Assembly: GCA_000424365.1 (NCBI GenBank)
Contig: AUJT01000004.1
Coordinates: forward strand, 95,372 to 159,371
Length of the DNA stretch: 64,000 nucleotides
Reading direction: 5' to 3'
From: Lachnospiraceae bacterium NK4A144
GTDB taxonomy: Bacteria; Bacillota; Clostridia; Lachnospirales; Lachnospiraceae
The translations under genes and the position numbers were made by a program. Below, piece by piece: positions 10,278 to 58,103 of this stretch (within the stretch, counting starts at the first letter, position 1; the number at the start of each line of letters is the position of its first letter). The notes beneath the pieces were generated by a model, which saw only the letters and a list, made by a program, of their open reading frames with translations, made no database searches and was not told the origin of the DNA.

Positions 10278-10406
10278 GCGTGAAGCTAAGAATAAATACC
10301 TCTTGGAACAATTAGCCGGCAGCACTTAGTGAACACGCTGTCCGAATAGGCAATTCAGGATAACTGTCCGAGCCGTGACAAGAGGTACTTATTCTTAGCT
10401 GAACGC
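10278..10406. repeat. Structured intergenic element C, partial relative of family B
   Basis: Outer arms 10278-10305 and 10379-10406 pair at 25 of 28 positions. Between them 10304-10350 is nearly identical to the left part of the family B elements (core GCACTTAGTGAACACG), and CTGTCCGAGCCGTGACA (10364-10380) matches their right edge. The long central hairpin of family B is missing. The element starts about 10 bp beyond the stop of the WbsX-like gene. Confidence 0.75.
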
Positions 10407-17222: not shown

Positions 17223-17414
17223 TGATGTAAGGGTCAAAAGTAAATTTTGCCCCTTACTGATGTCACGGATTGCTTCATTGCTACGCAATTCCCGCAATCC
17301 TAAAACACTCGCATTCCGCGTAATAACGCTACTTGCTCGTGTTTTGCGGGTCCCAAGGTCTCAATCCTCTTTGTGCAAGCACAATCGGATTTTGACCTTT
17401 TGACCCTGACATCA
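17223..17414. repeat. Structured intergenic element D
   Basis: The 267-bp gap upstream of capE is filled by a bounded, multi-hairpin element. Outer arms TGATGTAAGGGTCAAAA (17223-17239) and 17398-17414 pair with one mismatch in 17. Inside are GGTC-AATCC-TTGTGC against GCACAA-GGATT-GACC (17357-17397), AAAACAC with GTGTTTT (17302-17308 and 17339-17345) flanked by CCCGC and GCGGG, and GGATTGC with GCAATCC (17268-17300). No gene-like frame is inside. Confidence 0.8.
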
Positions 17415-51495: not shown

Positions 51496-54447
51496 TTATC
51501 GACCGGATCTGCGAAAGCCTTTAGCTTTAGACTTCTTTTTTTCTTCGTCCTCAGGAATGATATGTTCTGTTTTTTCAGGCTGCGACGCTCTTCCGTCCCG
51601 ATCAAGCATCTTCTTTATATATGCCCCTGTGTATGAAGCTTTTATCTTTGCCACATCTTCCGGAGTTCCTTCCGCAACGACGGTTCCGCCGCCGTCACCG
51701 CCTTCCGGTCCCATATCTACGATATAATCGCCGCACTTTATGACATCGAGATTATGCTCAATGACAATGACCGTATTTCCGCTTTCCGACAAGCGCCTGA
51801 GTATCGTTACCAGTTTCCGGACATCTTCAAAGTGAAGACCCGTTGTCGGCTCATCAAGGATATATATGGTTTTTCCCGTGCCACGACGGCTAAGCTCCGT
51901 CGCAAGCTTTATTCTCTGTGCCTCGCCTCCGGATAGTTCTGTACTCGGCTGACCGAGCTTCACATATCCTAGTCCGACATCATACAGAGTCTGTATCTTT
52001 CTACGGATTGACTCGACATTTTCAAAGAACTTAAGCGCTTCCTCCACCGTCATGTCAAGAACTTCAAATATTGTCTTTCCTTTGTAATGTACTTCCAGAG
52101 TCTCCCTGTTATACCTCTGGCCATGACAGACTTCACACGGCACATATACATCCGGCAGGAAGTGCATCTCTATCTTCACTATGCCGTCACCTGCGCATGC
52201 TTCGCATCGTCCGCCCTTTACATTAAAGGAAAAGCGCCCCTTGGCATACCCTCTTTCTTTTGCCTCCACTGTTGCTGCAAAGAGATCACGTATCTGATCG
52301 AATACACCTGTGTAAGTTGCAGGATTTGATCGAGGTGTTCTTCCGATTGGTGACTGATCAATAGCAATAACTTTATCCAGCTGTGAAACACCTTCTATCC
52401 TGTCATGATCTCCGGGCACAGTTAATGCCCGATTTAGCTTATGCGCCAGGCTTTTATAAAGGATTTCATTTATAAGTGATGACTTTCCGGAGCCCGAAAC
52501 ACCGGTCACTACTGTCATTATCCCCAGCGGAAGGTCGACATTTACATTTTTAAGATTATGCTCTCTTGCGCCGCATATCCTGATCCAGCCCGTCGGAGTC
52601 CTGCGTTCTGAAGGGACAGGTATCGTAAGCTCACCGGACAGATACTTTCCGGTAATAGACTCAGGCACCTTCATGATTTCCTCCGCAGTACCCTGAGCCA
52701 CAACTTCACCACCGTGCATTCCCGCGCCCGGACCGATATCCACTACCTGATCTGCCTGCCGCATCGTATCCTCATCATGCTCAACGACGATCAGTGTATT
52801 TCCAAGGTCTCTCAGCTTTTTTAGCGAATTAAGAAGCTTATCATTATCTCTCTGATGCAGACCTATACTGGGCTCATCAAGTATATAAGCGACGCCCACC
52901 AGTCCGGAACCGATCTGTGTCGCAAGCCTTATACGCTGCGCTTCACCTCCGGACAAAGAAGCCGTAGCGCGTGAAAGCGTCAGATAATCAAGTCCGACTT
53001 CTACCAGAAACTCTACTCTTGAATGGATTTCTTTTATAACGCGTTTTCCTATTATCTGCCGATGCTCATCCAGCTCCAGTCCATCCATAAACTCAAGAAG
53101 TCTGCGTATCGGCAGACTTGTCACTTCATATATGTTTTTGTCTCCGACCGTAACTGCCAGAGATGTTTTCTTAAGCCTCTGGCCTCCGCAGGACTGACAC
53201 GGTGTGACACACATAAATTTTTCATACTCTGCCTTAGCAGAGTCTGAACCTGTTTCACGATAACGCTGCTCTACATTCTTTATAAGTCCCTCAAACGGCA
53301 CATCATATACACCTTCTGACCTCTGACCTTTATAATGTACTTTCATCACAGCGCCATCCGTGCCATAAATAAATGCCTTCCTCACTTTCTCAGGAAGATC
53401 TTCATACGGAGTATCGAGTGAAAATTTATAGTACTCCGCCATCGCTTCCAAAAGCGCATGAGTAAAACTTCCTGCATCCTTTGATGAAGCCCACCCCTGA
53501 ACCTGCACGCATCCTTCATTAAAGGAGAGAGACCTGTCAGGAATCATGAGACTTTCATCAAATTCCATATGATAACCAAGCCCCATACAGTCCGGACAAT
53601 AACCGAAAGGATTATTGAAAGAGAAACTGCGAGGTTCTATTTCATCTATGCTGACTCCACAGTCCGGACATGAAAAACTCTCGGAGAAGTTCAGCGTTTC
53701 TCCGTCGATCACATCCACCATCATCAGTCCATCCGCAAGTGACAGCACATTTTCGATAGAATCTGTGAGACGGCGTTCTATACCGGGTTTTACCACCAAA
53801 CGGTCTACTACGATCTCGATGTTATGCTTGATATTTTTATCGAGCGCTATTTCTTCCGTGAGTTCGTACATATTTCCGTCTATACGTACACGGACATATC
53901 CGCTTTTCTTTGCTCTGTCGAGGACTTTTTCATGGCGTCCTTTTCTTCCGCGTACTACCGGCGCAAGCAGCTGGATCTTTGTTCTCTCCGGCAGCTGCAT
54001 GATCTGATCTGCCATCTGATCTACAGTCTGTCTCTCGATCACCCTGCCGCATTCCGGACAATGCGGGATACCCACTCTCGCATACAGCAGTCTGAAGTAA
54101 TCATATATTTCCGTTACTGTTCCTACTGTTGAACGAGGGTTTCTGTTTGTTGATTTCTGGTCGATGGAAATTGCCGGCGGAAGTCCGCTTATAGACTCTA
54201 CTTCCGGCTTTTCCATCTGCCCGAGGAACTGTCTCGCATAGGACGAGAGTGATTCCATATATCTTCGCTGCCCTTCGGCATAGATCGTATCAAATGCTAG
54301 GGAGGACTTTCCCGAACCGGACAGTCCTGTCAGGACTACCATTTCGTTTCGCGGAATGTCGATGTTGATCTCTTTTAGATTATGTGCCTTTGCACCACGT
54401 ATTTTTATAAATTGGCTGTAGTTTTTTGTAGCTTCTTTTTTTTCCAT
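51496..54447 (-). CDS. uvrA: UvrABC excision nuclease subunit A
   Basis: UvrA finds DNA damage with UvrB. The ~983-residue protein has two ABC ATPase halves: Walker [17 protein letters not shown] near 32 and [16 protein letters not shown] near 640, signature [12 protein letters not shown] and [12 protein letters not shown], and the zinc fingers C-x2-C (CPDCG...CPDCMG near 250-290; CEACAGDG...CEVCHG near 735-765). The start at 54447 (MEKKEATKN) has GGAGACAAAAC upstream. A lysine-rich C-terminal extension of ~35 residues ([15 protein letters not shown]) follows the usual end. It is probably SOS-controlled (box at 54684-54697). Confidence 0.96.
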
Positions 54448-54485
54448 GTTTTGTCTCCAAGTCACGTGCCGATTGTATATGTTTT

Positions 54486-54640
54486 CTTGTCACGGCTCGG
54501 ACAGACACTAAGCTCACGCACTGTCCTCATGAACACGGAATTTTCCGCAAAACTCGCCGCTAATGCGGCTCAAACAGTTTGCGGAAAATTCCTATTCGGA
54601 CAGCACGTTCACTAAGTGCTGCCGGCTGATTGTTCCAATA
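54486..54640. repeat. Structured intergenic element, family B, copy 2
   Basis: In the minus (uvrA-sense) orientation it aligns with 54866-55005 over ~140 bp. The central stem GGAATTTTCCGCAAA (54537-54551) pairs perfectly with 54578-54592 and holds an apical GCCGC/GCGGC stem with loop TAAT. CTGTCC/GGACAG and CACTTAGTGAAC...GTGAGCTTAGTG lie outside it. It would be inside the uvrA mRNA leader if transcription starts near the LexA box. Confidence 0.85.
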
Positions 54641-54672
54641 AAACATATACAACCTGCACTCACGCTTACACA

Positions 54673-54701
54673 AATAAACATTCGGAACAGACGTTTGTAA
54701 A
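54673..54701 (-). promoter_or_regulatory. Candidate uvrA promoter overlapping a LexA (SOS) box
   Basis: GGAACAGACGTTTG (54684-54697) matches 12 of 14 positions of the Firmicute SOS box CGAACRNRYGTTYC, on either strand. TTTACA (54696-54701) and TTTATT (54673-54678) on the minus strand are 17 bp apart, so the box would cover the promoter. uvrA belongs to the LexA regulon in B. subtilis. The start is ~230 bp from the gene, which is long. Confidence 0.5.
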
Positions 54702-54832
54702 TGATATTATCACAGCTCCTACCCACAATCAAGTTCATAAAAGTATTCATTTCAATTATCGAACTTATGCACGCACCTGCTGTTATCCTTCGATACCTTT
54801 CATCATCCACCCCTACGAGCTGCCACAGCCGT

Positions 54833-55040
54833 CCACGGCGAGGGCAGCTTGTATAGTTATTTCTTGTAGCAATTAGCCGTATGCACTTAGTGAACACGAT
54901 GTCCGAATAGGAAATTTTCGCAAGCTGTTTGAGATGCGAAGCATCGAGTTTTGCGAAAATTTCCGCTCTTATGAGGACACCGCGTGAGCTTAGTGCACTA
55001 CGAGCGCGGAAAGAAATCACTATACAAGTTGTACTCGCCT
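54833..55040. repeat. Structured intergenic element, family B, copy 1
   Basis: The conserved part (about 54870-55005) has GGAAATTTTCGCAA (54910-54923) pairing perfectly with 54951-54964. An apical GATGC/GCATC stem closes a GCGAAGC mini-hairpin, and TGTCC/GGACA plus the CACTTAGTGAAC...GTGAGCTTAGTG loop lie outside it. Outer arms around 54833-54863 and 55011-55040 (AAGAAATNACTATACAAG core) are also inverted. Four stem pairs differ from copy 2 in a compensating way. It lies beyond the terminator of the DPM-like gene. I see nothing in 54702-54832. Confidence 0.85.
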
Positions 55041-55098
55041 GCCACTGTCTGTCCGAGCGCGAAGAAAAATCACTATACAAACTGCCCTCGCCTGCCAC
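55001..55098. repeat. Two-unit direct repeat at the edge of the family B element
   Basis: A unit starting CGAGCGCG and holding AATCACTATACAA and CTCGCCTGCCAC occurs at 55001-55046 and again at 55054-55098, a spacing of 53 bp with roughly 80 percent identity. An inverted relative of it forms the left arm at 54833-54867. Confidence 0.6.
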
Positions 55099-55154: not shown

Positions 55155-55919
55155 TTAACCTATGAACTTTTTAACCATGTTTTCCGTATAGGAATTTGTC
55201 CAGCGTGTTACTGTGATGCCGCCTCGCTTGCTTGCACGGAAGATCAGTGCCAGTACCTGCTGGAGATACTGCATAGTAACCTTTGAACTGAGCTTTGACT
55301 CACCGCTGGTACGATTCTGGAAAGCATACGGGATCTCGATGATGGAGCTGTATTCACTCATTGCCAGAACTTCGATCATGATCTTCCAGCCAACCGGTCT
55401 GAGATCTGCATTAGCGATACATCCCTTGCGGAACATGAAAAGACCGGAAGTCGGATCACTTACTTTTCTGAGGCACGGAAGAGCGATCTTTCCGATCCAG
55501 CGTGCTGTGCCGGATACAAACTTTCTGTACCAGTTAAGACCGCCGTCATCCCCACCGGGTATCAGTCTGCTGGGGATACAGAAATCTGCGCCTGAACGAA
55601 GTGCTGCATACATAGGGCGAAGGATTGCAGGTGGATGCTGCAGATCCGCGTCCATACATGCAAGAAAATCTCCCTTTGCTATACGGAAGCCTCTGATAAC
55701 TGCCGTAGCCAGACCACTCTCATTAACTCTGTGCTCATAGCGAACACGGTCATTTTCTTCCGAAATCTTCTGAAGAACCTCCGGTGTCTCATCTGTGCTA
55801 TCATCAATAAAAACTATTTCGTATTCAATTCCCTTAAGGGCATCACCGATCTGCTTAACCAGATTCTCTACGTTGCCCTTTTCATTAAAGGTCGGAACGA
55901 CCACTGAAAGCATTTCCAT
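55155..55919 (-). CDS. Dolichol-phosphate-mannose-synthase-like family 2 glycosyltransferase
   Basis: The ~254-residue protein has MLSVVVPTFNEKGNVENLV at the start, VFIDDSTDETPEVLQKI near 36, and the metal site CMDADLQHPPAIL near 86. DPTSGLFMFRKG near 138 and NRTSGESKLSSKVTMQYL near 195 are the DPM1/polyprenyl-phosphate sugar synthase pattern. It lacks the C-terminal membrane helices of GtrB-type proteins. It could make a polyprenyl-phosphate sugar for GT-C enzymes such as those at 31777-33726 and 37260, which is inference. The start at 55919 has AAAGGGAAACAAA before it; a longer frame to 55988 includes the promoter. It is a single-gene unit. Confidence 0.82.
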   Translation of the reverse strand: MEMLSVVVPTFNEKGNVENLVKQIGDALKGIEYEIVFIDDSTDETPEVLQKISEENDRVRYEHRVNESGLATAVIRGFRIAKGDFLACMDADLQHPPAILRPMYAALRSGADFCIPSRLIPGGDDGGLNWYRKFVSGTARWIGKIALPCLRKVSDPTSGLFMFRKGCIANADLRPVGWKIMIEVLAMSEYSSIIEIPYAFQNRTSGESKLSSKVTMQYLQQVLALIFRASKRGGITVTRWTNSYTENMVKKFIG

Positions 55920-55974
55920 TTTGTTTCCCTTTCGGTTGTTTTTTTGTATTTCCCCACTTTGCACAACCTTTTTT

Positions 55975-56002
55975 ATTATAAAGGTCACAAAATATACGTC
56001 AA
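55975..56002 (-). promoter_or_regulatory. Promoter of the DPM-like transferase gene
   Basis: TTGACG (55997-56002) and TATAAT (55975-55980) on the minus strand are 16 bp apart, with a leader of about 50 nt. It excludes the longer reading frame to 55988. Confidence 0.7.
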
Positions 56003-56105
56003 GGATATTATTTCATAAACAGAACACACAAAATCTAGTCAATGTGACTTCGAATCATTATATGATGACACGAATTGCTCCGCTGCTGATCCAGTTCACG
56101 CAATT

Positions 56106-58103
56106 CTACGTAAACGAATTCAGATTTTCCCTGAGTTCCATCATCTTATCTCTGAGTTCCGCTGCCGTTTCAAAATCCAACTCTGCTGCAGCAGCTTTCA
56201 TCTTCTTTTCAACCTTCTTTATGAGTTCCTCAAGTTCCTTCTTATCCATGGATTCAGGATCTTTCTTAAACTCATATTCGCTCTTTGCTACAGACTTTGT
56301 AAGCGAAATAAGATCGCGAACTGCTTTCTTAATGGTCTGCGGCGTGATTCCATGGTCTTCATTGTACTTCTGCTGTATCTCGCGTCTCCTGGCAGTCTCG
56401 TCAAGACATATCCTCATGGAATCCGTCACGGAATCCGCGTACATGATAACATGCCCCTCGGCGTTTCTCGCAGCACGTCCTACAGTCTGGATAAGCGATG
56501 TCGCAGATCTCAAAAATCCCTCTTTATCCGCGTCAAGTATCGCAACCAGCGAAATCTCCGGTATATCCAGACCTTCACGGAGAAGGTTGATACCGACCAA
56601 CACATCAAAAACATCCAGACGCATATCGCGGATTATCTCAGCTCTTTCCAACGTATCAATATCAGAATGAAGGTAACGCACACGTATACCGATCTCTCTT
56701 AAATAGTCCGTAAGCTGTTCAGCCATTTTTTTCGTAAGCGTCGTGACCAGTATCTTATTTTTCTTCTCTATCTCAGTATTTATCTCCTGCACCAGATCAT
56801 CGATCTGACCTGCGGTCGGTCGGACGTCGATCAACGGATCCAGAAGACCCGTCGGTCTTATCAGCTGCTCTGCCCGCAGCAGCTCATGCTCTTTTTCATA
56901 ATCAGCAGGTGTCGCAGAAACAAATAATATCTGATTTATGTGCTGTTCAAATTCATCAAAAGAAAGCGGTCTGTTATCTTTTGCGCTCGGTAAGCGGAAG
57001 CCATATTCCACAAGCGTATTTTTTCTGGAGAGGTTTCCGTTAAACATACCTCCGATCTGCGGGATAGAGATATGGGACTCATCAACAATTATCAGAAAAT
57101 CATCCGGGAAGAAATCCATAAGGGTCGTCGGTGGAGTCCCCGCCGGCATACCGGACATAGGTCCCGTGTAATTTTCGATACCGCTGCAGAAACCTGTCTC
57201 ACGAAGCATCTCCATATCAAAACGGGTTCTCTCGGAAATCCTCTGGGCTTCTATGAGCTTATCCTCCGACCGGAAAAACTTAACTCTTTCTTCCAGCTCT
57301 TTTTCGATGCGTGCGATACCGGCTTCCATCTTTTCCTTGGGCATTACGTAGTGAGAAGCAGGGAAGATAGAAACCTGTCGAAGTTCTTCCTTCGGTTCTC
57401 CGGTAAGGACATCGATCGTTACTATCCTGTCTATCTCATCACCAAAAAACTCTACGCGGATAGCAGTTTCATCTTCTTCCGCTGGGAAGATCTCCAATAC
57501 ATCTCCATGCACACGAAAAGTTCCACGGTGAAAATCCAGATCATTTCTCGTGTACTGTATCCCTATAAGTTCATGAATAACTTCATCCCTGTCCTTCTCC
57601 TGTCCCGGACGCAGAGACACGATCATTGCGAGATAATCATCCGGTGATCCCAGTCCATATATACACGAAACAGAGGCCACGACTATAACATCCCTTCTTT
57701 CGGAAAGCGCGGCTGTAGCCGCAAGTCTTAGCTTATCAATGTTGTCATTTATGGATGAATCCTTTTCTATATACGTATCCGTTGACGGCACATACGCCTC
57801 CGGCTGGTAATAGTCGTAGTAGGACACAAAATACTCTACAGCATTCTCAGGAAAAAACTCTTTAAACTCGCTATAAAGCTGACCTGCCAGAGTTTTATTA
57901 TGTGATATGACAAGCGTTGGTTTATTTAACGCCGCTATGACGTTTGCCATTGTAAAAGTCTTTCCGGAACCGGTAACACCAACCAACGTCTCACACTGGT
58001 TTCCATCCTGAAATCCTTTTACGAGTTTCTCTATAGCCTGGGGCTGATCGCCGGTGGGTTTATATTCGCTGTGCAATTTAAATACGTTATTCTCTTTTCC
58101 CAT
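56106..58103 (-). CDS. uvrB: UvrABC excision nuclease subunit B
   Basis: UvrB verifies damage handed over by UvrA and loads UvrC. The 665-residue protein has [20 protein letters not shown] near 12, Walker [19 protein letters not shown] near 38, the beta-hairpin [21 protein letters not shown] in two parts near 91-111, [15 protein letters not shown] near 340, and the C-terminal UVR motif [17 protein letters not shown] near 640. The separation from uvrA by a transferase gene is unlike the uvrBA operon of B. subtilis. A 7-bp inverted repeat (56072-56106) at the stop has no T run. No SOS box is obvious before it. Confidence 0.96.

What the first reader, a model, noticed from the sequence alone, without database searches (positions are those of the whole stretch)
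54486..55040. Two inverted copies of a second structured element with four compensated base pairs
The copies at 54486-54640 and 54833-55040 lie in opposite orientation ~200 bp apart. The central stem (14-15 perfect pairs) differs at two positions and the apical stem (GATGC/GCATC against GCCGC/GCGGC) at two more, always with both sides changed. One apical loop is GCGAAGC, known as an exceptionally stable DNA mini-hairpin.
Basis: partly seen in the sequence, partly recalled or inferred. Interest (0 to 1): 0.75.

Follow-up and report, generated by a model that had tools for sequence, protein, structure and literature searches.

The report
Dispersed rod-shaped hairpin repeat family
The two mirror-image structures are members of a family of about 200-letter folded repeats scattered between genes in one genus of gut bacteria; copies keep the same hairpin although their letters differ, so something probably recognises the folded shape, but what it does is not yet known.

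Summary
Both copies exist, with the four compensated pairs described and one further, uncompensated difference. Each is a complete ~200-bp imperfect palindrome folding into a rod (shuffle z -9.6 and -9.9). They belong to a dispersed family: 27 matches in this 4.09-Mb genome, 21 full length; matches in 19 of 61 genomes searched, all in one Lachnospiraceae genus. No Rfam family reaches its threshold. Across 21 own copies 35 of 53 pairs change on both sides (0 of 500 shuffles). Stems vary while loop sequences are nearly fixed. The reverse strand folds better as RNA in 60 of 66 close copies and 32 of 44 from other genomes, but its G-U excess holds only in the close copies, so single-strand function is likely, not proven. 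Full-length copies within a genome are at most 85% identical: no recent multiplication. Copies decay by hairpin deletions; at uvrA several relatives lack the element. Best reading: an old interspersed hairpin repeat recognised by shape, like BOX, ERIC or REPIN elements. Mobilising enzyme, transcription and function are unknown; host-functional RNA and template-switch maintenance remain rivals.

The parts
54464..54664 (+). copy a, complete element (ACGTGC ... GCACTCACG)
   Evidence: (R1 175.6 bits)
54840..55039 (-). copy b, complete element, outer ends diverged
   Evidence: (R1 172.6 bits)
54537..54592 (+). central stem of copy a (15 perfect pairs, arms 54537-54551 and 54578-54592) with its apex
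54910..54964 (-). central stem of copy b (14 perfect pairs, arms 54910-54923 and 54951-54964) with its apex
54936..54942 (+). GCGAAGC apex of copy b, on the strand that folds better as RNA in most close copies
55046..55093 (-). 5' stub of a further, mostly deleted copy
   Evidence: family D1, pairs I3 and I6; boundaries read by eye
10295..10388 (-). truncated copy elsewhere in the window
   Evidence: 49.6 bits, E 1.4e-9
51496..54465 (-). uvrA-like gene whose start lies next to copy a (probable ATG near 54447-54449)
   Evidence: ORF; gene name recalled, not searched
55155..55988 (-). glycosyltransferase-like gene on the other side
   Evidence: ORF; gene name recalled, not searched

Best explanation
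A family of small interspersed repeats (about 200 bp) that spread between genes in an ancestor of a cluster of Lachnospiraceae species because a trans-acting factor recognised the folded single strand: a rod of variable helices separated by nearly fixed internal loops. What the factor reads is the loops and the rod, not the helix sequence, so helices can drift as long as they pair. Shown: dispersal, common fold, covariation, an RNA-energy preference for one strand, element-free relatives at uvrA, decay by hairpin deletion. Inferred: that spread was by movement of a folded strand (RNA or ssDNA), that a protein or enzyme recognises it, and that it is no longer active in the three genomes compared.
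For: 27 matches in the own genome; 19 of 61 genomes, all same genus, 0 of 24 outside it, with strict filters; 18 of 48 genus genomes by pattern, 0 control matches. None of the 27 own copies overlaps a predicted gene by more than 40 bp, and they lie next to both starts and stops (crude gene calls); 18 of 20 neighbouring genes scanned had Pfam matches, of unrelated functions. Covariation: 35 of 53 pairs, 146 cells changed on both sides against 36.8 in shuffles. Conserved ends ACGTGC ... GCACTTACGTTnTGGC over 66 copies. The reverse strand has lower RNA folding energy in 60 of 66 close copies and 32 of 44 from other genomes; in the close copies G-U to A-C is 149 to 39 on that strand against 108 to 70 on the other, the Rfam-curated control being 29 to 6. 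Full-length paralogues average 72% identity, maximum 85%, while presumed same-locus copies are mostly 93-100%: old dispersal. In G006 and G027 only 7 unaligned bases separate the uvrA and glycosyltransferase alignments, against about 725 here. Losses are hairpin deletions leaving end pieces.
Against: No target-site duplication or clean recent insertion was found; apparent empty sites at cobT/cobB in G009 and at L010a in G030 keep end pieces, so they look like losses. No enzyme is linked: Y1 transposases are in 24 of 48 genomes but not in G009 (28 model matches, genome 75% complete) or G031 (14), and are abundant (17) in G032, which has no element match. In 10 of 15 orthologous comparisons the element is more conserved than both flanks, which fits a function at the locus. 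The G-U excess depends on the structure chosen in each orientation, and it is absent in other genomes: 30 G-U to 30 A-C over the 23 pairs of a poor mixed alignment, and 2.3 G-U pairs per fold on the reverse strand against 3.0 on the forward. With DNA parameters the energy preference is 50 of 66 close copies and 22 of 44 others. Of the three tandem G.A loops only one recurs in more than half of the elements from other genomes (25 of 44; the other two 0 and 13 of 44).
Confidence: 0.5

Rival explanations
1. Each copy is a host-functional structured RNA (untranslated-region or small RNA) kept by selection at its own locus, the family being a multi-copy ncRNA class like Clostridiales-1 RNA.
For: Elements exceed both flanks in identity in 10 of 15 orthologous comparisons, with sharp borders at L017, L016 and L019; one strand folds better as RNA; the same genomes carry another multi-copy structured family, Clostridiales-1.
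Against: No constant orientation or position relative to genes and no shared function among 20 neighbours scanned; six partial copies in one genome; among 14 close orthologous rows 52 single against 2 double stem changes with no G-U preference (on the forward strand 14 to G.T, 18 to A.C, 18 to other, 2 others).
Confidence: 0.25
2. The compensated changes are made by DNA template switching between palindrome arms (quasipalindrome correction), not by selection on structure.
For: A described mechanism that can create and maintain hairpins (PMC8794818, abstract and start of introduction seen); many both-side changes with few one-sided standard pairs; no G-U excess in other genomes.
Against: It should also tend to erase the unpaired internal loops, which are among the most conserved parts; close orthologues show singles, not doubles.
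Confidence: 0.15
3. It is a REPIN or REP-type element moved by a RAYT (REP-associated tyrosine transposase).
For: Interspersed, palindromic, compensated stems, inverted arrangement, as described for REPINs (PMC3116915 passages); long Y1 proteins of about RAYT size (size recalled) occur in the genus.
Against: Rod of about 200 nt, not two short REPs; G030 has no Y1 match in an open frame above 199 aa and G009 (75% complete) none at all; the own genome's 270-aa one lies on contig C15, which has no copy.
Confidence: 0.05

Closest known systems
BOX and RUP repeats of pneumococcus
   Same: Small interspersed repeats, tightly folded, spread in the past with slow current insertion, can be co-transcribed (PMC3049150, passages seen)
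   Different: BOX is modular; BOX and RUP have terminal inverted repeats and target duplications (same passages); here no target duplication was found and helices vary widely
REPIN / REP with RAYT
   Same: Palindromic, extragenic, compensated stems, inverted arrangement (PMC3116915, passages seen)
   Different: Longer rod with several internal loops, no linked RAYT found
ERIC elements
   Same: Intergenic imperfect palindromes of roughly similar size (recalled)
   Different: Recalled as enterobacterial with another sequence; not compared by sequence here
Clostridiales-1 RNA (RF01699)
   Same: Multi-copy covarying structured element in the same genomes; 46 matches in G000 among 46 scored candidates
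   Different: Different sequence and fold; many copies with the same score; the present family has no Rfam match

Membership tests
Small interspersed palindromic repeat (general kind) | many dispersed, non-coding, intergenic copies | tested here: met
Small interspersed palindromic repeat (general kind) | extensive self-pairing common to copies | tested here: met
MITE | terminal inverted repeats | tested here: met
   ends pair, ACGTGC with GCACTTACGT, though outer arms differ between copies
MITE | target-site duplication on insertion | tested here: inconclusive
   no clean recent insertion; apparent empty sites keep end pieces
MITE | ends shared with an autonomous element | not tested
   only 20 neighbouring genes and the Y1 family were examined
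REPIN/REP | linked RAYT | tested here: not met
   no visible relation of copy number to Y1 matches; the RAYT-length match in G000 is on C15, which has no copy
Rfam RNA family | match above gathering score | tested here: not met
   (best sub-threshold E 0.15)
Structured RNA | G-U tolerated more than A-C on one strand | tested here: inconclusive
   close copies 149:39 on the reverse strand, 108:70 on the forward; control 29:6; other genomes 30:30
Structured RNA | transcription | not testable with these tools
   no expression data

The most novel reading that the evidence does not exclude
A genus-specific class of mobile or multi-copy folded single strands, built as a rod of interchangeable helices around fixed internal loops (at least one of them a tandem G.A loop shared between species), recognised in folded form by a dedicated unknown protein and moved or used as RNA or single-stranded DNA.
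Probability: 0.2. Interest if true: 0.7.

Novelty: new member of a known kind. Interest (0 to 1): 0.42.

Why it matters
Helices vary widely while loops are nearly fixed, over dozens of paralogues in each of several genomes, which gives a natural data set on shape recognition. It also warns that covariation in repeats is not by itself proof of a functional RNA at each locus, since close orthologues show mainly uncompensated change.

Tried and rejected
RAYT/Y1 link: no visible relation to copy number. Phage, plasmid or viral origin: no match by blastn in phages and plasmids or by an exact two-part pattern in viral contigs. Known RNA: none. Association with particular genes (20 neighbours): unrelated functions. 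My first reading, that pairing acts only at the double-stranded DNA level, came from the forward-strand counts G-U 108 to A-C 70; it was weakened when the reverse strand of the close copies gave 149 to 39 and lower energies, but the elements of other genomes do not show the G-U excess, so the point stays open. Literature: the listings (no paper found) showed no description of this family; most subscription papers are not held.

Data limits: three element pairings scored too low and were dropped, and several of the 22 rows counted pair non-orthologous members, so I quote only the 14 rows with at least 92.9% identity. In one search I quote 15 of 27 rows: element aligned over at least 190 columns and both flanks over at least 60; one of the 15 (L013/L068) has poorly aligned flanks. 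Loop II could not be read in 11 of 66 copies. The 55 and 48 'cross' elements still held some from G030 and G009; one search repeats energies and loops on 44 elements from other genomes (47 of 70 kept, 3 duplicates dropped). The Clostridiales-1 control used 21 sequences: the window copy and 20 of 28 loci given to the search. In one search the alignment failed for several genomes, so I use only G006 and G027 from it, and for the rest. Identity of G030 with MC2017 and of G009 with CAMVTN01 rests on equal contig lengths. No species tree was made. One search stopped on an error after its first counts and was replaced by later scripts.

Full report
Observation. The window holds two imperfect palindromes of about 200 bp in opposite orientation, copy a at 54464-54664 (+) and copy b at 54840-55039 (-), between a glycosyltransferase-like gene and a uvrA-like gene, both on the minus strand (gene names recalled). 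A fifth difference is not compensated: the last central pair is A-T in a and A.C in b. Each copy folds far better than dinucleotide shuffles, z -9.62 and -9.92, 0 of 200 shuffles as good.

Family. A search of the window's own genome finds 27 matches, 21 of them full length and 6 partial. All 21 full-length copies were folded: nearly all give the same rod, the clear exception being the C3:6740-6905 copy, whose two halves no longer match. A covariance model from the 21 finds matches in 19 of 61 genomes: 19 of 37 in the same genus, 0 of 24 in other genera, with filters that lose weak matches. A short pattern for the 3' part finds 18 of 48 genus genomes, with no match of the control pattern. A two-part pattern over the named genome collection gives 65 stretches, all labelled Lachnospiraceae or Acetatifactor; 22 of the 65 titles name a rumen source, and they include the isolate Lachnospiraceae bacterium MC2017. 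No Rfam family reaches its gathering score here, the best sub-threshold match having E 0.15. Viral contigs (exact pattern), phages and plasmids (blastn) gave no match.

Covariation. On the 21 own copies 35 of 53 pairs have a change on both sides against 16.6 in shuffles, and 146 cells against 36.8 (0 of 500 shuffles reach either); sliding the partners by 1-3 columns drops pairing from 95.6% to 31-45%. With 66 full-length copies of G000 (21), G030 (25) and G009 (20) the boundaries are clear: ACGTGC at the 5' end, GCACTTACGTTnTGGC at the 3' end, no conservation upstream. Helices vary; blocks such as CTAAG on both sides, GGCT(A/G)ATTG and CTCAAACAG are nearly fixed.

Which strand. In the orientation used above the consensus of the 66 has 3659 Watson-Crick, 108 G-U, 70 A-C and 105 other cells (60 pairs). 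In the reverse orientation it has 3838, 149, 39 and 112 (63 pairs); each structure was chosen by the program in its own orientation, which favours G-U there. The curated Clostridiales-1 RNA from the same genus, 21 sequences, gives 801, 29, 6 and 46 on its Rfam strand. The reverse strand has the lower RNA folding energy in 60 of 66 close copies and in 32 of 44 from other genomes; Clostridiales-1 has it on its Rfam strand in 21 of 21. Against this, elements of other genomes show no G-U excess: 30 to 30 in a poor mixed alignment with 23 pairs, and 2.3 G-U pairs per fold on the reverse strand against 3.0 on the forward. With DNA parameters the preference is 50 of 66 close copies and 22 of 44 others. 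On the reverse strand three internal loops of the own copies can form tandem G.A pairs (my reading). In the one next to CTTAG both sides read pyrimidine-G-A-purine in 36 of 66 close copies, 11 of the 66 being unreadable, and in 25 of 44 from other genomes; the commonest exception has CAAA on one side. The sequences of the other two recur in 40 and 55 of 66 close copies but in 0 and 13 of 44 others. I conclude that a folded single strand, probably this one, is what is recognised, but the case is moderate and RNA against ssDNA is open.

History. Among the 66 copies no two in one genome exceed 85% identity (mean 72%), while the closest copy at the presumed same locus in another of the three genomes is usually 93-100% identical. 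The copies therefore seem to have spread before these species split. In 10 of 15 orthologous comparisons the element is more conserved than both flanking 100-base stretches, in 3 between and in 2 below both. The two below are striking: at L020 against L071 the element is 68% identical beside flanks of 97% and 76%, and at L018 against L058 76% beside 92% and 84%; in both, stems differ on both sides while loops are largely kept. I have no proven cause; import by recombination from another lineage or renewed insertion at the same place are possible. Among 14 close orthologous rows there are 52 single and only 2 double stem changes, without preference for G-U: at this time scale copies change singly rather than compensate.

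Gain and loss. In G006 and G027 only 7 unaligned bases separate the uvrA and glycosyltransferase alignments, and about 40 in G032, against about 725 here. The simplest reading, without a tree, is gain in an ancestor of G000, G030 and G009, which share copy a. Copy b is absent from G030. Losses are visible as deletions inside the hairpin: copy a in G009, L011 in G009, and apparently L024 in G009 and L010a in G030, which keep only short end pieces. G030 at L024 has no trace, which may be the original empty site or a full deletion.

Surroundings. Neighbours scanned (20 proteins, many truncated) include arginyl-tRNA synthetase, YgbB, glycosidase, amidase, racemase, sugar kinase, phosphorylase and cobalamin-type domains; 18 of 20 had a Pfam match. 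Copies occur beside both starts and stops. By crude gene calls the 5' end lies nearer a gene (median 43 bp, 25 values) than the 3' end (about 150 bp, 24 values), partly because of the pairs (my medians). Among the matches listed for the three genomes, eight apparently independent loci have two copies within 600 bp, always + then -; other genomes also show same-direction neighbours (G027 and G006, L195).

Mechanism. The best-supported account is an old family of small interspersed hairpin repeats that multiplied because some factor recognised the folded strand by its loops. The mobilising enzyme is unknown; Y1 transposases, the obvious candidates, do not follow copy number. The strongest rival is a host-functional RNA at each locus, favoured by the loci more conserved than their flanks and by the presence of another multi-copy structured family; against it stand the lack of a common position relative to genes and the uncompensated changes. 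Template switching (PMC8794818, abstract seen) may contribute double changes but does not explain why the loops persist unpaired.

Known relatives in kind are BOX/RUP (PMC3049150, passages), REPINs (PMC3116915, passages) and ERIC (recalled). I rate it a new member of a known kind, with an unusual freedom of helix sequence.

Noticed in passing
window 17258-17414 (-): Clostridiales-1 RNA (RF01699, 128.7 bits). The family is multi-copy: 46 matches in this genome (only 46 of 136 candidates were scored), many with the same score, and matches in 43 of 48 genus genomes. It is closed by an inverted repeat TGATGTCA/TGACATCA and looks like an amplified interspersed element.
   Followed up: partly
window about 56059-56108: A roughly 45-bp piece that matches many places in G009 and G030, at least two of them coinciding with Clostridiales-1 hits (G009:C8, G030:C12): probably a fragment of that element between the glycosyltransferase-like gene and a uvrB-like gene.
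   Followed up: no
L020:1495-1688 against L071 and L051: Same locus, left flank 97% identical to G009, but each of three species carries a differently rewritten element.
   Followed up: partly
L010:1028-1220 (-): A copy in which 5' and 3' halves no longer match; the 3' half is nearly that of G030's copy and the 5' half differs: looks like a hybrid of two copies.
   Followed up: no
L012, L067, L049, L083: Flanks on the right of L012 also match flanks of these other copies, suggesting a larger repeated unit.
   Followed up: no
G006: All 11 pattern matches lie on the + strand of their contigs, unlike G027, which has matches on both strands; contig orientation is arbitrary, so it may be chance.
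   Followed up: no
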